This document shows, piece after piece, positions 24 through 37,927 of a stretch of DNA of 37,978 nt. Numbering within the stretch: the stretch's first letter is position 1; each line of letters opens with the position of its first letter. Position numbers and translations under genes: made by a program. The notes under the pieces were generated by a model that saw only the letters and a program-made list of their open reading frames with translations, was not told the DNA's origin and searched no databases. The DNA comes from an uncultured Gemmiger sp. (GTDB taxonomy: Bacteria; Bacillota; Clostridia; Oscillospirales; Ruminococcaceae), in NCBI GenBank assembly GCA_944382785.1, contig CALWNO010000025.1, positions 1-37,978 of the forward strand, read 5' to 3'.

Positions 24-55
24 AAAAGACGAATGTCTTTCGACATTCGTCTTTT
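24..55 (-). terminator. Host tRNA-Pro terminator left at attL
   Basis: A perfect 14-bp inverted repeat with a 4-nt loop (24-37 and 42-55) sits directly against the tRNA-like core; on the minus strand it ends in a T-run. It is most simply the original rho-independent terminator of the host tRNA gene, now separated from the gene by the prophage. Its last four bases belong to the att core. Confidence 0.8.
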
Positions 56-77
56 GGTCGGAGCAGCGGGATTTGAA
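52..77. other. attL core
   Basis: These 26 bases are identical to 37902-37927, where they form the 3' end (acceptor strand, part of the T arm and encoded CCA) of an otherwise intact tRNA-Pro. Identity stops at 78 (a here, c at 37928). The integrase gene begins 49 bp further in, as expected for a phage that integrates into a tRNA 3' end. Confidence 0.93.
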
Positions 78-117: not shown

Positions 118-139
118 TACGACAGTCATACGACACTTT
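118..139 (+). repeat. Putative integrase arm-type sites, left pair
   Basis: TACGACA occurs at 118-124 and 129-135, 11 bp apart, overlapping the 3' end of the integrase gene. The same pair with the same 11-bp period and orientation occurs inside the right end at 37770-37787, and TACGACACTTT is shared exactly. Tyrosine integrases bind repeated arm sites on both sides of attP, so that role is inferred from position and symmetry. Confidence 0.6.
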
Positions 140-1232
140 CCATCTGATCCCGAGCAAGCTTCATTTCGCTGGCGTAGCCGTGGGTGTAAATCTGCATAGT
201 GGTGTGGATGTCGGCGTGGCCCATCCAGAGTTGGCGGGCCTTCATGGGCACATCGGCCCGGTCCAGCAGAGTGGCGCAGTAGTGGCGCAGCTGGTGGGCG
301 GTGACGTCCACTTCCCAGTGGGTCTGGCGTTTTCCGTTGTACGGCTTATACTCCCCTGCCTCATGGGCCAGCCCCAGGGCCTTGCAATAGGCCAGCCACC
401 GCTTCCGGTGCTGGCTGGCCGTCAGCGGCTCACGGGTGCCGCTGATCAGGTACTCCCCCGCGGGGCGGCGGCCTTCCTGGGCCAGGCGGGCCGCCAGCGG
501 GCTCAGGATCGGCACCTGCCGGACGGCGTTCTTGGTTTTGGTGGTGGAGATTACCGGCTTGTTATTCCCCCATGACACCGCTTTCGTCACCGACAGCACC
601 CCATTTTCCAGGTCAATGTCCCCCCAGGTGAGGGCCATGATCTCCCCCAGCCGCAAGCCGGTGTACATGGCCACCGCGGCCAGCAGGCCCATCTTGCCAT
701 CCAGATGGGCTTTGATCGTCTCGATAGCCTCATCCGCCGGCGGGGTGCGCTCCACCTTCTTGCCTTTCAGGTTCCGCACCAGCAGGCTGGGGTTGGCATC
801 GCCGCCCAGATCGGTGCACCAATACCCAAAAATCAGGTTTAGAACGCTGTGCCGATTCCGCATGGTGGCCTGGGCCAGCCCCTCGGCCTTCAGGTCTTTC
901 AGCCATGCCGCCACGTCCTGGGGCTTGATCTGCGCCATCCGGCGGCCACTGAAGCTCTCCACCGCTGCCTGGTAACTGGCCTTATAGCTGCGCAGGGTGC
1001 CGGGCTTCAAGGCCGGCTGGGCCTGCTCCCACCACTCCCTGGCAACATTCTCAAAGAGCGGCCCTGCGGCTTCCTGCTGGGCGCTGAGGGCCATCTGCTG
1101 CAGCTCTGCCTGGTACTTTGCCTCGGATTCGGCCCGGCTGGCGCCGTAAAAGTGCCGCCGGCGCCCGTCCGGCATGGTGTGGGTGACCTCCACCAGCCCG
1201 TCGGCCCGCTGGCCTTTCTTCTTCTTTGCCAT
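126..1232 (-). CDS. int: Phage tyrosine integrase
   Basis: A 368-aa site-specific tyrosine recombinase that would insert and excise the prophage at the tRNA-Pro gene. The basic N-terminus (MAKKKKG) resembles an arm-binding region; a SAM-like core-binding domain follows (about 60-165), then the catalytic domain with the first Arg in TGLRLGE, HxxR in HQLRH, the GH motif and the nucleophile Tyr in QIYTH near the C-terminus, so all catalytic residues are present. The ATG at 1232 is chosen because GGAGGG lies 7 nt upstream; an in-frame ATG at 1247 overlaps that ribosome site. It is transcribed towards attL. Family assignment is firm. Confidence 0.96.
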   Translation of the reverse strand: MAKKKKGQRADGLVEVTHTMPDGRRRHFYGASRAESEAKYQAELQQMALSAQQEAAGPLFENVAREWWEQAQPALKPGTLRSYKASYQAAVESFSGRRMAQIKPQDVAAWLKDLKAEGLAQATMRNRHSVLNLIFGYWCTDLGGDANPSLLVRNLKGKKVERTPPADEAIETIKAHLDGKMGLLAAVAMYTGLRLGEIMALTWGDIDLENGVLSVTKAVSWGNNKPVISTTKTKNAVRQVPILSPLAARLAQEGRRPAGEYLISGTREPLTASQHRKRWLAYCKALGLAHEAGEYKPYNGKRQTHWEVDVTAHQLRHYCATLLDRADVPMKARQLWMGHADIHTTMQIYTHGYASEMKLARDQMESVV

Positions 1233-1423
1233 AGCACAACCCTCCAAAACGACAACGATTATACAACACAGCAGACTCCGGGTGTGCTATAATAAAAGCG
1301 CAGGATCACCCATAAGATCATGCTCCTTTCATTGGACGTAACGCACTGCCCCGGGGTCCGCACTTCCCCGGGGTATCTTAAGATTCTATAGCGGTTTGCT
1401 TTGCATTCATATACTTCCCCCTG

Positions 1424-6981: not shown

Positions 6982-7014
6982 TTCATTGTAGCAGAAATGG
7001 AGGAATTTGCAAGA

Positions 7015-8505
7015 ATGGAAACCACAAACGCCGTCAAGCTGGCGGCCATCCTGGTGAGCTATAAAAAGAAAATCGGCGGTGATATGACCGCCGAAGGATT
7101 CAGAAATGCCATGGGAAACGGTTGGTCTGCCCGATCCTTTGGGTTCATTGACTACGACTACAAAGGTGTTTCTATTCGTCCCGAGGGAGAGCCGGAAACG
7201 AAATACACCTGGTCCAAATTTATCAAGTTTTGCCGTGAGAACGGCCTGATGGAGGAGGCGACCACCCCATGCAATCCCAAACCTGTCCCGAGCACGGATG
7301 CTGCTGCGACTGCGGCAGACCCTGCTGCCGCGCCGCCGGCGGCAACTTCGACCACTTGGGAGAGCGGGGCGGATGCCGCCGCATCGACCCCCGGGAGCTC
7401 GACCGAGTCCACCCAAGCCTCACCATCGGCCCCCTGCTCCCCTGTGGGCTCCGACACTGCCGTGCCTTTGGCCTGTGCGCCCAGTGCGTCCGCAACCCCC
7501 GCCGCTGGCTTTGACTTTGGAGCCGACGCCGAGACTAATGCACTGCTGCTCCAGGATGCTCAAATCTTCATGGCCAGCAGCATGGCCCGAGTGATGGCCG
7601 CGAAACGGGCTCACGATCGGACAGCTCACAACTATCGGGGCAGCTGGGGCAAATGGTGCGAGGTGGTCGGCATCAGCCGCGACACCGGCGACAACATGGT
7701 GAGAGTTGCCGAACGGTTCGGCAACGTCCAGATCGACGGGCAGAACTTGATCGACCTCCAGCCCCTGAAACTGCTCTATGCAGCTTCCAAGCCTTCCGCC
7801 CCGGCCCAGCTGGTGCAGGGGGTCAAAGACGGGGACATCACCACCAACAAGCAGTACCAGGAGCTCCTGGCCCAGCTGAAAGCCAAGGACCAGGCCCTGG
7901 CCGACGAGAAGGCCGCCCATAAAGCTGAAAGTCTCGCTTTCAGTGAGGCACTAGCAGATGAACAGCGCCTCCGTCAAGCGTCAGATGCAGCCCGGATCGA
8001 GGCTGAGAGTACCGTTCGTGGGCTGCAAGAGCTCTGCTCTGGAGCCAGCAAGAGCGAGCAAGCAGCTATCCAGCGGGCCGAGAAGGCAGAGCAGCAGTTG
8101 GCTACCACTCGGGACGAGCTTCGGCAGCAGACAGGCCGGGTGAAGGAGCTGGAGGCCCGCCCCATCGAGGTGAAGGGCGCCGACCCCGACGACATCGCAC
8201 GCTGGCTGGCCGAGGGTGCCAAACCGGTGCAGGCGAAGCTGGACCAGGCTCTGGCCGAGGCTGCCGAACTTCGGCAACAGCTCCGCGAGTCACAGGCCGG
8301 GAAGCAGGACTCCGCCGACGAACTGGGCATCTCGAAGCAGATTGTCAGCAGCCTGGAGGATATCCTGCGGGCCCGGTTTGAAACCCTGGACTCTCTGGAT
8401 TATGACACCTTCGAGGCCGCTGTGGAGCCCTTCGAGGGCCTGCGGGACCGGCTGAACGAGGCGCTGGAGTTTGGCTCCTGGCCCAAAGGAAAGGAGGTCA
8501 AGTGA
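7015..8505 (+). CDS. DUF3102-like phage protein with long coiled coil
   Basis: A 496-aa protein. Residues about 1-85 form one compact domain, about 85-168 are a Pro/Ala/Ser/Thr-rich stretch, about 175-235 resemble DUF3102 (NYRGSWGKWCEVVGISRDTG), and the remainder is a long Glu/Gln/Ala-rich coiled coil. DUF3102 proteins are common in phages of Firmicutes but their role is not known. ATG 7015 is chosen because GGAGG (6999-7003) lies 11 nt upstream; ATG 6997 has no ribosome site. The low-complexity stretch coincides with a Cys-rich reading frame at 7269-7514, so it may be a by-product of overlapping coding. Confidence 0.75.
   Translation: METTNAVKLAAILVSYKKKIGGDMTAEGFRNAMGNGWSARSFGFIDYDYKGVSIRPEGEPETKYTWSKFIKFCRENGLMEEATTPCNPKPVPSTDAAATAADPAAAPPAATSTTWESGADAAASTPGSSTESTQASPSAPCSPVGSDTAVPLACAPSASATPAAGFDFGADAETNALLLQDAQIFMASSMARVMAAKRAHDRTAHNYRGSWGKWCEVVGISRDTGDNMVRVAERFGNVQIDGQNLIDLQPLKLLYAASKPSAPAQLVQGVKDGDITTNKQYQELLAQLKAKDQALADEKAAHKAESLAFSEALADEQRLRQASDAARIEAESTVRGLQELCSGASKSEQAAIQRAEKAEQQLATTRDELRQQTGRVKELEARPIEVKGADPDDIARWLAEGAKPVQAKLDQALAEAAELRQQLRESQAGKQDSADELGISKQIVSSLEDILRARFETLDSLDYDTFEAAVEPFEGLRDRLNEALEFGSWPKGKEVK
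7269..7514 (+). CDS. Possible overlapping Cys-rich zinc-binding protein
   Basis: An 81-aa frame lying wholly inside the DUF3102-like gene. It begins with ATG 10 nt after GGAGGAGG (7251-7258) and encodes a cluster of Cys/His (CPEHGCCCDCGRPCC) plus a second set near the C-terminus (CAQC), as in small phage zinc-ribbon proteins. By hand count about 83 percent of its codons end in G or C, against about 69 percent for the long frame over the same bases. These three facts favour real coding, but no family was matched and chance cannot be excluded in GC-rich DNA. Confidence 0.45.
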   Translation: MQSQTCPEHGCCCDCGRPCCRAAGGNFDHLGERGGCRRIDPRELDRVHPSLTIGPLLPCGLRHCRAFGLCAQCVRNPRRWL

Positions 8506-19823: not shown

Positions 19824-21350
19824 ATGTCCAACCCCATGTCGCACAACCCTGACCTGAACGAGACCGGCCAGGAGATTCAGCAGCGGATTGCTGACGCTCT
19901 GAAAAACAACGATGCAGCCAAGTTTGCCCAGGCGTTCAACGAGAACCTGGACTTCAAGGCTCAGATCCTGAAAGAGGAGTTTGACGCCAAGATCGCAGGC
20001 ATCCAGCAGAGCATGGACAACAGCACCCTCAATACGCGCGGCGTCCGCCAGCTGACCAGCAAGGAGCGCACCTACTGGCAGAAGATCATCGATGCTATGA
20101 AGTCCAACAGCCCCAAGCAGGCCCTGGCCAACATCGACGACGTGCTGCCCGAGACCGTCATCGACTCGGTTTTTGAGGATCTGCGCATTTCCCACCCGCT
20201 GCTGGACGTCATCAACTTCCAGCCCACCACCGCCACCACCACCTTCCTGACCAATGCCAACGGCATCAATATGGCCGCCTGGGGCCCTCTGTGCGACGAG
20301 ATCGTCAAGGAGATAGTCTCCGGCTTTAAGTCGGTGCAGACCGGTCTGTTCAAGCTGTCGGCCTTTATCCCCATCTGCCAGGATATGCTGCAGCTGGGCC
20401 CCGAGTGGCTGGATCGTTACATCCGCGAGATTCTGGGCGACGCGCTGTACAACGGCCTTGAGAATGGCATCATCAACGGCGACGGCAACAACCAGCCCAT
20501 CGGCATGATCCGCCAGGTGGGCGACGATGTCACGGTCGTGGGCAATGCCTATCCCTCCAAGTCTCCCGTCGCCGTCAGCGACCTGGGCGTCCAGTCTGTG
20601 GCCAATCTGATGTCCCTGCTGGCCGTCAACCCCATGGGCAAGCCCCGCCGGGTGGACGACCTGATCCTGGTGGTAAATCCCCAGGATTACTACCGCCGGG
20701 TGATGCCTGCCACCACCATCATGGCGCCTGACGGCACCTACCGCAATGACGTACTCCCTTATCCTGTGCAGGTGATCCAGAGCCCCTTTGTGGCTCTTGG
20801 CACGGCTGTGTTCGGCATTGCCTCCCGGTATTTTGCGGCCATCGCCACCGGCTCCAGCATGGCGGGCCGGATTGAGTATGACGACTCCTACCGCTTCCTG
20901 GAGGACGAGCGCGTCTACAAGATCAAGCTGCTGGCTAACGGCTTCCCGATGGACAACAACGCTTTCCTGCTGCTTGACATCAGCGGGATGAACCCCTTGG
21001 TCTTCAAGACCCAGACCGTGGCCGCCCCCGCAGCCTCCACCAATGCCAACTTGGCGTCGCTGTCCATCTCTGGCGGCAAGCTGAGCCCCGCCTTTGCGGC
21101 TGAGACTGACACCTACACCATGAGCACCACCAAGACCAGCGGCACCATCACCGCTGTGCCTGCTGACAACAACGCCAGCGTCGTGATCCAGGCCAACATC
21201 AACTCTGCTGGCAACAAGGAAGTGGCCAACGGCAGCGCCGTCACCTGGCAGGCCGGCTCCTCCAGCAACGTCATCACCGTCACCGTGACCGCCGAGGATG
21301 GCTCTACCAACGAGACTTACACCGTGACGGTCACCCAGAACAACTCTTAA
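19824..21350 (+). CDS. Major capsid protein with C-terminal cadherin-like domain
   Basis: A 508-aa HK97-fold capsid protein. Residues about 1-100 are a helical delta-domain-like region; about 105-395 form the HK97 fold (DDVLPETVIDSVFEDL, NGIINGDGNNQPIGM, RYFAAIATGSSMAG). From about 405 to 508 there is an added all-beta module (LASLSISGGKLSPAFAAE ... ITVTVTAEDGSTNETYTVTV) of the cadherin-like beta-sandwich type. Such modules on capsids are thought to project outward and may bind glycans. AAAGGAG lies 10 nt upstream. Confidence 0.92.
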   Translation: MSNPMSHNPDLNETGQEIQQRIADALKNNDAAKFAQAFNENLDFKAQILKEEFDAKIAGIQQSMDNSTLNTRGVRQLTSKERTYWQKIIDAMKSNSPKQALANIDDVLPETVIDSVFEDLRISHPLLDVINFQPTTATTTFLTNANGINMAAWGPLCDEIVKEIVSGFKSVQTGLFKLSAFIPICQDMLQLGPEWLDRYIREILGDALYNGLENGIINGDGNNQPIGMIRQVGDDVTVVGNAYPSKSPVAVSDLGVQSVANLMSLLAVNPMGKPRRVDDLILVVNPQDYYRRVMPATTIMAPDGTYRNDVLPYPVQVIQSPFVALGTAVFGIASRYFAAIATGSSMAGRIEYDDSYRFLEDERVYKIKLLANGFPMDNNAFLLLDISGMNPLVFKTQTVAAPAASTNANLASLSISGGKLSPAFAAETDTYTMSTTKTSGTITAVPADNNASVVIQANINSAGNKEVANGSAVTWQAGSSSNVITVTVTAEDGSTNETYTVTVTQNNS

Positions 21351-30664: not shown

Positions 30665-31486
30665 ATGACCAACACCCAAGTGGTCGATATCGACCTGGTG
30701 AATCCGGGCTATCAGGCCACGATTTTTGCAGTGGTGGGCGATATTTACAGCCGATTTGTAGAGATGCACCTGTACGCCGCAGGGCAGCCTTACACACCGC
30801 CCGAGGGTGTCCAGTGCGTGATTGGCTGGCGCCGGGGCCTGTATCGCGGCAGCTACTCCCAGATTATGGCTGAGCAGGATACCGCCCCCGAAACCCACCA
30901 GGCATGGCAGCTCCAGGATAACATCCTCACCATCGAGCTCAACTGGGAGATCACCTCTAAGTCCGGCCCGGTGGCGGTCAATGTGGCCCTGGTGGGGCTG
31001 GACGGCAGCCGTCTCCACACCTGGGAGCTGCAATGCCAGGTGCAGCCGGGCGCTGTAGCCGATGCCGAAGACCCAACGCTTCCAAATGAGTCGGCCTCGG
31101 CCGCTGCCGACCGGGCTGAAGCTGCGGCAGAAAAGGCCCAGGCCGCCGCCGAAGAGGCCCAGAAGGTTGTCTCTGAGTCCGGCGCCGTGATCACGGTCAA
31201 TGGGCAGGGCGGAAACGTAGAGCTTGACGCTGCCGACGTGGGAGCCGTAGCTCTGCCCGACAACGCCGTCCAGGCGCAGCCTGGCATGATCCTCTCTATC
31301 ACCGGCGTGGACCCTGACGGCAATATCACGACCGAGGCCGCCCCCATTCCCCTGGGTGTTGGCTTTTATGAGATTCCACAGGATACCATCCTCCCGCCCT
31401 ATCAGCGGCAGGAGGGTGCCCTGTATGGCAAAGTCCTCACCGACTTTACCCAGGTCACGCAGCTGGAATGGGGTGCCGGAGCGTGA
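30665..31486 (+). CDS. BppU-like baseplate upper protein
   Basis: A 273-aa protein. Residues about 1-125 match the N-terminal domain of BppU-type proteins (VVDIDLVNPGYQATIFAVVGD, ELNWEITSKSGPVAVNVALV), an Ala/Glu-rich coiled coil follows (about 140-175), and the end is a small beta domain. It would link the tail tip to the receptor-binding proteins. AAAGGAGTGA lies 9 nt upstream of the ATG. Confidence 0.8.
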   Translation: MTNTQVVDIDLVNPGYQATIFAVVGDIYSRFVEMHLYAAGQPYTPPEGVQCVIGWRRGLYRGSYSQIMAEQDTAPETHQAWQLQDNILTIELNWEITSKSGPVAVNVALVGLDGSRLHTWELQCQVQPGAVADAEDPTLPNESASAAADRAEAAAEKAQAAAEEAQKVVSESGAVITVNGQGGNVELDAADVGAVALPDNAVQAQPGMILSITGVDPDGNITTEAAPIPLGVGFYEIPQDTILPPYQRQEGALYGKVLTDFTQVTQLEWGAGA

Positions 31487-31593
31487 GCGAGATTGTGGGG
31501 GAGGAAATCAAACCCCGCCGGAAGATTTCGGCAAACCGCACAGTCTCGGCCAAGCGAAAGCTGAAACAGCTAAAGCAATCCGCAAAGCAGTGA
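31483..31593 (+). CDS. 36-aa basic peptide
   Basis: A small frame starting at GTG, overlapping the BppU stop (GTGA), encoding a Lys/Arg-rich peptide (KISANRTVSAKRKLKQLKQS). It fills the gap exactly to the ribosome site of the fibre gene (AAAGGAG at 31594-31600), which supports translation. The upstream ribosome site is weak. Function unknown. Confidence 0.45.
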   Translation: MSEIVGEEIKPRRKISANRTVSAKRKLKQLKQSAKQ

Positions 31594-31611
31594 AAGGAGC
31601 TGAAGTAAACG

Positions 31612-33885
31612 GTGGCAAGCGCAAAACTTTCCACAAAGGCCGTTGGCAGCATCATCAAGCTGAACCTGAACAGCACTCCCTGGGACATCCGCATTCTGCA
31701 CCAGGGGAATCCCAACCCCGCTCTCTATGACGGCAGCTGCGATGGCACATGGGTTTGTCTGGAGAAGATTTATTCCACACGGGCGTGGGATCGCAACAAC
31801 AACGACCTGAAAAATTCTGACATCATGGCGTGGCTGAACGGGGATTTCCTCAATATGTTCGACCCCGATATCCGCGCCGCGATCAAACAGGTAAAGATTC
31901 CCTACGTCAACGGCCCCGGCAGTTCGGCGGTGGCGTCCGGTGCCAACGGACTGAGCTGTAAAATCTTCCTGCTGTCCGACTATGAGCTGGGCTGGACCAA
32001 GAGCGACAACTCTTATTTCCCGCAGGTCGGCGCGAAGCTGGATTACTTCACCGCCGGAACCGGCTCGGCAGCCAACAAGAAACGTATTGCAAAGTACAAC
32101 GGTTCGGCCACCAGCTGGTGGACCCGCTCGCCGAAAAGGAGCAGCGTCTACTACGTCTGGTGCGTCTACTCGGACGGCAACTACAACGGCTGGAGCTGCG
32201 ACGACACCAGCGGCGTGCGCCCCGCTTTTGTACTTTCTTCTACACTCTCGGTCTCTGACGATGGTACGGTCTCGACCAACGAGCCCCCCACGGCCCCCGG
32301 CTCCATTGAAGTCACCGGCATCGTGGGCGGCGGCAGCGCCACCATCACCCTGACGGCCGCCACCGACCCCGACGGCACCGTTGCCTCCTATGTGTATGAG
32401 CGGTCCGTGGACGGCGGCCAGTTTGTCCGGTTTGCCAACGTCAACAGCCTGACCACCACTGACAGCGTGCAGAATGGATGGGGCACCGTGGCCTACCGGG
32501 CGGCGGCGGTGGACAACTACGGGAGTCAGGGCCCCTACATCACCAGCGAGACTTTCACAGTCAACAGCAGATGGATCTTGATTGGAGGCCCCATCTCCAA
32601 CCTGGGCGTCCAGGCAGGGCTTTTTATCCTGCCCATCAATATCGGCGTATCGGGCAACACCGGCGTCACCGGGATCAACCTGCAAGTCCTGCAGGACGGC
32701 GTCCAGGTCTACAACGATACTGTCAATCAGGGCGATGTGATCAGCATCCCGGTGGACACACGAGCCATGGCAAGCGGTCAGCACGAGATCCAAGCCATCG
32801 CGGAAAAGGAAGATTACCTCTCCGCAAATGTGGCCTGGTATTTTGTGGTGCCGTCCATGGGTTTGCCGGACGGAGGCCGCTCTGAGCAGCTGCAAAACGC
32901 TGACGGGCAACCTATTTTCCCCGTCACCACCACCCGCGATGTCATTGGTCCCAACGGCGAGAGCGCCCAGACTCAGATCGACAAGATCAACCGCAGTCGC
33001 CAGGGCATCACGGGGCATCTGGCCTTTGTGGACGCAGTCATGGGGCCAAACGCCAGCTATGTGCTGGCACGGGCCGCGGCCACCACCTACGCCTACCAGT
33101 ATTTTGCTCCCGCCTCTGCAGAGGCGACCGGCGCGGCTCTGGTGAGCGTATACCCGGGGTATAACGGCGCTGTGGGCGACCTGCTGACTGCCGTGGCGGA
33201 TACGCTGACCTTTAACATCCCGGCAAATGGCCTGCTGAGCATCTATCAGTACAACCTGGATGCCACAGACCCGCCGAACACTGACCCCACCGCCAACTTT
33301 GTGACTCTGGATCAGCCTCATGTGGTGACGGCTGCCACAAACACCGGCAACACGGCTGACGGTCTCGAAGACGCGCTCACGGCTATGATGCGTGCTTTCC
33401 CGTCCCGGAACTATTACACCTTGAACGACGCCATGGACCCCGATGCGACTTATTATGTGGTGTCCCAGGCCGTCATCGGACCCGACACTGCCAGCGCCAC
33501 CGTGGCCTATGTGTCCAGCGCCAACCCCACTACCTGGTACCAGGGCGTGCAGATCACCCTGATGAATACCAGCAACATCCCGGCACTGTTTGACTACATC
33601 TCCAGCCCGCTGGTGTCCGCTGCCACCACCGACAATCCTGTGGTGGCCGGAGTCAACCTCAACGCTACGCTGGCAACTATGATCAAGGCGCAGCCCATCT
33701 ATCTGCGTTATCAGCTGGAGAGCTCCACCGGTGTCCTGTACTATGTGTGCAGCCCCACCGCCATCACGCCCGAAACCGTGTCGGCCATCAATGTGCTGTA
33801 TTGTACGGCATCCGGCACCTACTACAACGGCGAGACACTAACGCTGGCCCCGCCCACTGATCCCACCCCGGAGGTGACAGAGTAA
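31612..33885 (+). CDS. Receptor-binding/fibre protein with DUF6273 domain
   Basis: A 757-aa baseplate or fibre protein. Residues about 25-212 are a DUF6273-type, C-lectin-like domain (WLNGDFLNMFDPDIRAAI, WWTRSPKR, GVRPAFVLS), 223-318 a fibronectin-III-like domain, about 318-420 another beta domain, and the rest a Thr/Ala-rich fibre-like region. Residues 175-200 carry a run of NNC codons (AGC, TAC, TGC, GAC, AAC) as in retroelement-diversified variable repeats. GTG start at 31612, AAAGGAG 11 nt upstream. Likely role: binding of host surface. Confidence 0.8.
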   Translation: MASAKLSTKAVGSIIKLNLNSTPWDIRILHQGNPNPALYDGSCDGTWVCLEKIYSTRAWDRNNNDLKNSDIMAWLNGDFLNMFDPDIRAAIKQVKIPYVNGPGSSAVASGANGLSCKIFLLSDYELGWTKSDNSYFPQVGAKLDYFTAGTGSAANKKRIAKYNGSATSWWTRSPKRSSVYYVWCVYSDGNYNGWSCDDTSGVRPAFVLSSTLSVSDDGTVSTNEPPTAPGSIEVTGIVGGGSATITLTAATDPDGTVASYVYERSVDGGQFVRFANVNSLTTTDSVQNGWGTVAYRAAAVDNYGSQGPYITSETFTVNSRWILIGGPISNLGVQAGLFILPINIGVSGNTGVTGINLQVLQDGVQVYNDTVNQGDVISIPVDTRAMASGQHEIQAIAEKEDYLSANVAWYFVVPSMGLPDGGRSEQLQNADGQPIFPVTTTRDVIGPNGESAQTQIDKINRSRQGITGHLAFVDAVMGPNASYVLARAAATTYAYQYFAPASAEATGAALVSVYPGYNGAVGDLLTAVADTLTFNIPANGLLSIYQYNLDATDPPNTDPTANFVTLDQPHVVTAATNTGNTADGLEDALTAMMRAFPSRNYYTLNDAMDPDATYYVVSQAVIGPDTASATVAYVSSANPTTWYQGVQITLMNTSNIPALFDYISSPLVSAATTDNPVVAGVNLNATLATMIKAQPIYLRYQLESSTGVLYYVCSPTAITPETVSAINVLYCTASGTYYNGETLTLAPPTDPTPEVTE
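32134..32230 (+). other. Candidate DGR variable repeat
   Basis: Codons for residues 177, 178, 180, 181, 184, 186, 190-192, 195-198 and 200 are AGC, TAC, TGC, GAC or AAC, with one TGG (194), i.e. variants of AAC that differ at first and second bases, between an invariant WWTRSP block and an invariant GVRPAF end encoded at 32212-32229. This fits adenine-specific mutagenesis of an AAC-rich template. No template repeat or reverse transcriptase was seen in this window, and C-ending codons are common here, so it remains a candidate. Confidence 0.5.
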
Positions 33886-37901: not shown

Positions 37902-37927
37902 TTTTGGTCGGAGCAGCGGGATTTGAA
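37902..37927. other. attR core
   Basis: Identical to 52-77. Here the 26 bases are the 3' end of the intact tRNA-Pro gene, so the phage supplies the replaced tRNA end. The core covers the terminal CCA, the acceptor strand and part of the T arm. Confidence 0.93.

What the first reader, a model, noticed from the sequence alone, without database searches (positions are those of the whole stretch)
32134..32230. DGR-like variable repeat in the fibre gene, with no reverse transcriptase in the prophage
Seen: in the DUF6273 domain of the 757-aa fibre protein, 14 codons between residues 177 and 200 are AGC, TAC, TGC, GAC or AAC, while flanking WWTRSP and GVRPAF blocks look fixed. Known: diversity-generating retroelements mutate template adenines, so AAC codons become such NNC codons, and DUF6273/C-lectin folds are frequent DGR targets. 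Not seen: any reverse transcriptase, Avd or second copy (template repeat). Inference: the target may be diversified in trans by a DGR elsewhere in the host, or be a remnant of a lost element. The position early in the protein is also unusual, as targets usually vary at the C-terminus.
Basis: partly seen in the sequence, partly recalled or inferred. Interest (0 to 1): 0.75.

Follow-up and report, generated by a model that had tools for sequence, protein, structure and literature searches.

The report
Orphaned hypervariable lectin in a prophage
A prophage in a bacterium carries a surface-lectin gene whose binding loop bears the marks of a mutation-making retroelement, but of that retroelement only the tail end of the reverse-transcriptase gene was found, just in front of the lectin, so the loop is probably frozen, or second-hand from a relative.

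Summary
In detail: codons 175-200 of the 757-aa DUF6273 protein are a variable repeat (VR) of diversity-generating-retroelement (DGR) type. Related phages carry Avd, template repeat (TR), reverse transcriptase (RT) and target in a row. The closest relative found, IMG/VR contig L134 (73% aa), has an intact DGR. Against its TR the window's VR differs at 14 of 34 A sites and 4 of 71 others; against its gene, codon bases 1+2 are scrambled inside the VR while base 3 is kept (24/64, 1/32; flanks 7/178, 15/89).

The window is a whole prophage (26-bp att-like repeats). No TR, Avd or working RT was found in it, and no RT or TR in the host assembly. But 31483-31593, directly before the target, is the 3' end of a DGR RT (59% over 39 aa to L134's, E 6e-9). 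So this is a relic; trans action is not supported. The lectin's second half is closer to L134 at silent sites than its first (12/82 v 31/68; boundary chosen after seeing the profile), so the VR may have come by recombination with a DGR phage.

The parts
52..77 (.). attL-like copy of a 26-bp direct repeat
   Evidence: 26-bp exact direct repeat with 37902-37927; beside the integrase 126-1247
37902..37927 (.). attR-like copy, overlapping tRNA-Pro(CGG) 37905-37980 (-)
   Evidence: indicates that the window holds a whole integrated prophage
126..1247 (-). tyrosine integrase
   Evidence: PF00589 E 3e-21
30665..31486 (+). 273-aa protein of unknown family that now abuts the RT stub (its TGA overlaps the stub's GTG)
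   Evidence: no Pfam or PHROG match at E<=0.001
31483..31593 (+). stub of a DGR reverse transcriptase: about 36 codons from near its C-terminal end only
   Evidence: DGR-RT profile, positions 336-379 of 396, E 0.02; tblastn E 2e-5 to 5e-5 with three RTs; blastn to the RT gene of L134, 73% over 86 bp, E 2e-8; 0 of 5000 shuffles; 59% over 39 aa, E 6e-9
31612..33885 (+). tentaclin-like surface protein, 757 aa (former DGR target gene)
31744..32238 (+). DUF6273 (C-type-lectin-like) domain
   Evidence: PF19789; AlphaFold2 pLDDT 92.5 for residues 1-231
31932..32291 (+). block nearest to the DGR-bearing relative L134 (about 93% identical outside the VR)
   Evidence: identity profile; synonymous differences 12/82 inside v 31/68 before it
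32134..32211 (+). hypervariable part of the VR (codons 175-200); forms a beta-hairpin, strands at residues 181-185 and 191-195
32218..32226 (+). CGCCCCGCT at the VR 3' end, shared by the VR and TR of 25 of 29 relatives (position of the IMH; that name and role are recalled)

Best explanation
The stretch is a genuine DGR variable repeat in the beta-hairpin of an N-terminal lectin domain of a tentaclin-like phage surface protein. It was written by a DGR of the layout Avd - TR - RT - target that relatives still carry. In this prophage Avd, the TR and all but about 36 codons of the RT are missing, so the lectin can no longer be diversified in cis and its binding loop is frozen. Shown: VR pattern, template in a relative, RT stub, failure to find the rest in the whole prophage. 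Inferred: that the loss is recent (little third-base decay at the variable codons), that no co-resident DGR acts on it now, and that the protein still works as a binding protein with one fixed specificity.
For: TRs found about 2 kb upstream in 29 relatives, with 428 of 445 mismatches at template A (the scan that found them allowed at most 1 non-A mismatch in 60 bases and the extension penalised such mismatches, so this share is inflated by design; some loci are near-copies). L134: own VR 19 of 19 mismatches at A in the core; window VR against L134's TR, not selected in that way, 14 of 34 A sites and 4 of 71 other sites differ, Fisher p 2e-5. Window v L134 codons 169-200: bases 1+2 24/64, base 3 1/32; flanking block 7/178 and 15/89, p 4e-6. 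RT stub at the right place and strand; in the phage records its only tblastn match at E<=10 is the RT of FP_Brigit (E 5e-3; 2 records of one phage). No RVT_1 in the assembly, no TR-like peptide but the VR. Prophage bounded by att-like repeats.
Against: Four of 71 non-A sites differ from L134's TR (codons 175, 176, 179), so the window's own lost template differed or the VR has begun to drift. The own genome is a 93.6% complete assembly in 111 contigs; a DGR elsewhere in the cell could be missed. No reads were available to show that the VR is invariant in the population. The stub was weak in the first profile search (E 0.02 for the genome) and its best phage-record match is only E 5e-3; it became clear with L134's RT. 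The third-base test is significant against L115, L037 and L040 (p 0.002, 0.04, 0.01) but not against L039 (p 0.21).
Confidence: 0.87

Rival explanations
1. The VR is second-hand: the RT was lost earlier, and the lectin's second half with its VR was later imported by homologous recombination from an L134-like phage that has a working DGR. RT-less phages would then sample diversity made by others. This extends the best explanation rather than excludes it.
For: Window v L134 synonymous-codon differences 31/68 in codons 1-106 but 12/82 in codons 107-168 plus 201-227 (p 5e-5); six control pairs show no such step (p 0.39-0.74). The stub (73% nt) is as diverged as the first half of the gene (65-78% in 40-base steps), not as the block. 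Window VR v L134 TR third bases 1/36, below each of the TR pairs listed with gene divergence 0.15-0.36. L115 (G332) has a VR-like lectin beside otherwise unlike phage-type genes, with no RVT_1 in its genome.
Against: One donor relative only; the boundary at codon 107 was chosen after seeing the profile, so its p-value is optimistic; the exchange is not dated against the RT loss; constraint on this half was checked on six pairs only.
Confidence: 0.5
2. A DGR on another replicon or co-infecting phage still rewrites this VR in trans.
For: The GC-rich VR end is intact, the NNC pattern is little decayed, and a reconstituted DGR expressed from a plasmid edits a separate reporter (PMC12875486, passages). 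Strong DGR-RT profile matches occur in other species of the genus, e.g. G011 and G030.
Against: No RT but the stub and no TR found in the own assembly.
Confidence: 0.08
3. Ordinary lectin loop in a GC-rich gene; the NNC codons are codon bias.
For: The gene is rich in C-ending codons; DUF6273 lectins without RT such as L117, L118, L119 and L121 show no NNC excess, and L047, without RT and not shown to be a DGR target, does, so the codon pattern alone does not decide.
Against: NNC excess over the gene's own codon use, inverse base-1/2 v base-3 pattern, A-bias against a real template.
Confidence: 0.02
4. Assembly artefact: the RT and TR dropped out in assembly.
For: DGR repeats are said to complicate assembly (PMC5883640, passage); no reads available.
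Against: A collapse of TR onto VR would also remove the 5' part of the target gene, which is intact, and would not leave an RT 3' end (inference); the stub is diverged from L134's RT gene (73% nt) like the first half of the lectin.
Confidence: 0.04

Closest known systems
Tentaclins (Baykov et al. 2023, PMC10743442; nd4/nd12 target1, FP_Brigit Hoc-like protein)
   Same: N-terminal DUF6273 lectin with the VR in a surface beta-hairpin; [quoted passage not shown] best PHROG is the Hoc-like family
   Different: In that paper each genome analysed (several, picked at random from five groups) had the tentaclin inside a DGR cassette (section 2.4); here the cassette is gone. 757 aa exceeds the 313-649 aa given for phage tentaclins, one of 830 aa apart (section 2.3). 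The C-terminal Ig consensus was not tested.
DGRs of Faecalibacterium phages FP_Brigit, FP_Toutatis, Lelie (PMC5883640, PMC11792537)
   Same: Homologous target lectin (44-56% aa), same VR place
   Different: They have TR and RT directly upstream and a homologue of the Avd-family protein (PHROG match shown for Toutatis); the window has only an RT stub
IMG/VR contig IMGVR_UViG_3300030355_000011 (L134)
   Same: Nearest lectin, nearest template and nearest RT among those found
   Different: Intact Avd-TR-RT-target; of seven window proteins compared only the lectin protein, a GH25 lysozyme (33%) and a holin (46%) match its 8.7 kb
BPP-1 DGR / Mtd (recalled; the type system)
   Same: A-directed variation in a C-type-lectin-like fold
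   Different: BPP-1 VR is at the C-terminus; its RT, TR and Avd are present

Membership tests
DGR (active, cis) | RT gene of DGR type | tested here: not met
   only a ~36-codon stub from the RT's 3' end; no RVT_1 match in the assembly
DGR (active, cis) | template repeat | tested here: not met
   none found:
DGR (active, cis) | VR differing from a template at A sites | tested here: met
   against the TR of L134, not a TR of its own: 14/34 A v 4/71 other
DGR (active, cis) | Avd or equivalent | tested here: not met
   homologues of two PHROG-3206 (Avd) proteins in 58 of 68 RT-bearing loci; no match better than E 1.8 in the window
DGR (active, cis) | VR polymorphic in the population | not testable with these tools
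   no reads; no strain-level relatives found
Tentaclin | N-terminal C-lectin-like domain with surface beta-hairpin holding the VR | tested here: met
   PF19789; hairpin strands 181-185/191-195 in a pLDDT 92.5 model. Foldseek v PDB gave one hit at E<=0.001 (9qa6, an IgA peptidase) and only weak C-type-lectin hits, so the lectin fold itself rests on PMC10743442
[quoted passage not shown]
   residues 208-344 align to more than one segment in some relatives; model of residues 221-757 unusable (pLDDT 31.5); consensus not looked for

The most novel reading that the evidence does not exclude
Second-hand hypermutation: phages that have lost their DGR keep a working, little-decayed VR by taking lectin halves from DGR-bearing phages through recombination (or by trans homing into a kept GC-rich VR end), so one phage's mutator supplies receptor-binding diversity to a wider community of RT-less phages.
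Probability: 0.3. Interest if true: 0.65.

Novelty: new variant of a known kind. Interest (0 to 1): 0.45.

Why it matters
Searches for DGRs that start from the RT would pass over RT-less variable repeats. This locus gives an example marked by a scar: target, template in a relative and RT stub can all be named. It makes a question testable: once a phage loses its mutator, does its binding loop freeze and decay, or is it refreshed from other phages? Several other RT-less lectins with DGR-like codon patterns were met on the way (L115 in G332, L142, L192, Dulem virus 33), so the case may not be isolated.

Tried and rejected
Trans DGR in the host: no RT but the stub, no TR. Second DUF6273 gene of the own genome (C30, L009): no VR-like stretch, judged by eye. 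Shared RT loss of window and L115 in a common phage: L115 shows no stub and its neighbourhood is otherwise unlike. Strain-level relatives of the window prophage: none in viral contigs or genome contigs with single-protein queries; in 35 genomes of the genus only the window itself and a 33-base match in one genome. An 18-nt exact match of TR 3' ends at 7361-7378 (-) was judged chance: no further TR similarity. The 'real' line is empty because of a wrong option in my script; the real scores are those; its shuffle part stands (of 1000 shuffles 953 gave any match, 0 of 36 bits or more). One search listed many spurious motif matches, ignored. C-terminal model unusable. VIA-align not available. Rows left out: L082; L114 for want of the motif (52 of 53 rows counted); L078 and L080 from the tree as too short (50 rows); L161 and L223 (88 of 90 new loci used); 7 of the 16 phage records. 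Loci are not all independent: for example L171 is L115, L173 is L116, L210 is L120 and L222 is L119 under another name, and L071 and L072 are near-copies.

Full report
The gene and the stretch. The window is contig C25 of a 2.68-Mb assembly in 111 contigs, 93.6% complete. A 26-bp direct repeat at 52-77 and 37902-37927, the second overlapping a tRNA-Pro, with an integrase at 126-1247, indicates a complete prophage. The gene 31612-33885 codes for 757 aa with DUF6273 at 45-209. Its best PHROG is 'Hoc-like head decoration', so 'fibre' is not certain. Fifteen of the 24 codons 177-200 are AAC/AGC/TAC/TGC/GAC; no such stretch arose in 2000 codon shuffles.

Relatives are DGR targets. tblastn against 50,697 phage records gave 16 records, all under 60% identity; the nearest include Faecalibacterium phages. 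In FP_Brigit, FP_Toutatis and Lelie the gene directly upstream is a reverse transcriptase. A scan for repeats that differ at template A found a TR in L036, L037, L038 and L040 and none in the window. RVT_1 is present in 5 of 9 such phage records and in 25 of 35 IMG/VR records, and a DGR-RT profile hits 36 of 88 further loci (some of the rest are lectins without any VR-like stretch, and some records are fragments). In 29 pairs 428 of 445 TR/VR mismatches are at template A; because the search itself allowed few other mismatches, this share is inflated and I lean on L134 instead. Homologues of two proteins of the Avd family (PHROG 3206) are found in 58 of the 68 RT-bearing loci and in none of the other loci from L036 on that were in hand.

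The nearest relative holds the template. IMG/VR contig L134 (8739 bp) is 73% identical in the lectin and has an Avd-family gene, TR, RT and target in a row. Its own VR differs from its TR at 19 sites of the core, all A. The window's VR differs from L134's TR at 18 of 105 sites: 14 of the 34 A sites and 4 of the 71 others (p 2e-5). The gene alignment shows a local dip: 88-97% identity in 40-base steps on both sides, 68-70% in the VR. Inside codons 169-200 bases 1+2 differ at 24 of 64 places and base 3 at 1 of 32; in the flanking block 7 of 178 and 15 of 89. This inversion of the normal pattern is what DGR mutagenesis of AAC codons leaves. Against more distant lectins the same test is significant for L115, L037 and L040 and not for L039.

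The RT stub. A profile of five DGR RTs, run on 35 genomes of the genus, hit the own genome at one place only (E<=1): 31480-31611, model positions 336-379 of 396, E 0.02, directly before the target start, where RTs end in the relatives (3-80 bp before the target in 30 of 32 loci). tblastn with three RTs gives E 2e-5 to 5e-5 there; the best match in the reversed window has 28 bits against 37. L134's RT gives 59% over 39 aa, E 6e-9; blastn to L134 gives 73% over 86 bp, E 2e-8; 0 of 5000 shuffles of the stub peptide reach its score (113 v at most 48). Homology begins at 31483, where the stop of the upstream 273-aa gene overlaps it. Of the 21 RT-less loci compared, the window included, only the window shows such a stub; two of them hold no upstream DNA and one only 1.3 kb. 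In one search none of the 52 RT-less loci has an RT-profile match of 12 bits or more; the window has 14.1 in the same test.

No partner found in the host. RVT_1: none. DGR-RT profile: only the stub. TR/VR peptide profile at E<=10: only the VR itself, in the own genome and in G332. The assembly may lack some 6% of the genome, and other replicons are not covered.

Is the VR second-hand? Window v L134 differ at 31 of 68 synonymous codons in residues 1-106 but 12 of 82 in residues 107-168 and 201-227 (p 5e-5, boundary chosen); six control pairs show no step. The stub is as diverged as the first half. So the second half of the lectin, VR included, was probably exchanged with an L134-like phage after the first half and the RT end had diverged. 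Also, at third bases the VR is closer to L134's TR (1 of 36) than are the TR pairs with gene divergence 0.15-0.36; this may be the same fact seen twice. Whether the RT was lost before or after this exchange is open. A tree of 50 lectins without the VR puts the window with L115, another RT-less VR-like lectin, beside RT-bearing lectins (93/81, under the tool's mark for firm support; at least 4 changes of RT state on firm branches; L134 was not yet in it).

Wider picture. In 396 genomes of the family 27 match the protein. Of eleven such genomes tested for RVT_1, six have a match, several of them not next to the lectin. RT-less lectins fall into some with VR-like codons (window, L115) and some without (L117, L118, L119, L121).

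Structure. AlphaFold2 with 16 rows gives pLDDT 92.5; the VR is a hairpin with strands 181-185 and 191-195. Foldseek against PDB found one match at E<=0.001, an IgA peptidase of Thomasclavelia ramosa (9qa6, E 4e-7), and weak C-type-lectin hits. That DUF6273 resembles C-type lectins is from PMC10743442 (passages).

Literature. Tentaclins: abstract, passages and sections 2.3 and 2.4 of PMC10743442; there each genome analysed had the tentaclin in a DGR cassette. Faecalibacterium DGR prophages: passages of PMC11792537 and PMC5883640. Passages only of PMC8144416, PMC12629997, PMC11318856 and PMC12875486. The searches brought up no description of an RT-less tentaclin or of an RT stub before an orphan VR; they cover open-licence PMC papers only, and apart from the papers named I saw their hits only as listings.

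Noticed in passing
L037:9835-10410, L134:1087-1698 and homologues in 56 other RT-bearing loci: A ~190-200-aa protein upstream of the TR, without a Pfam match over cut-off, matches PHROG 3206 (Avd protein of DGR) in the two proteins tested; tblastn homologues occur in 58 of 68 RT-bearing loci and in none of the other loci in hand. PMC5883640 (passage) reports Avd homologues in Mushu and Lagaffe only, so Toutatis- and Brigit-type DGRs do seem to have one.
   Followed up: partly
L115 (G332 C61; L171 = CALXBN010000061.1, Ruthenibacterium MAG), L142, L192, L048 (Dulem virus 33, circular record): Further lectins with an excess of NNC codons in the hairpin but no RT found in the genome (L115), record (L048) or the locus held (L142, L192): candidate orphan or remote variable repeats.
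   Followed up: partly
L039 (MT835573) about 19989-20747: VR-like lectin without RT in its record and with an in-frame stop near codon 47; described only.
   Followed up: no
G030:C49 (L041): Same-genus contig with an RT, a DUF6273 gene and a second short DUF6273-like piece close by: a probable DGR of another target type.
   Followed up: no
window 7361-7378 (-): Exact 18-nt match to the 3' end of a relative's TR inside the 502-aa ORF 6997-8505; probably chance.
   Followed up: partly
L139, L141, L145-L147, L151, L159, L176, L177, L182, L185, L187, L198: The DGR RT matches the profile as two stretches split at model position ~131, some 57 nt apart; in those I checked from the offsets (L145, L176) both lie in one frame, so probably an insertion of about 19 residues that marks a sub-type of these RTs.
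   Followed up: no
L153, L154, L156: Three IMG/VR records of one source (2690315908) carry lectins with an identical hairpin peptide but differing flank codons, and no RT in the loci held.
   Followed up: no
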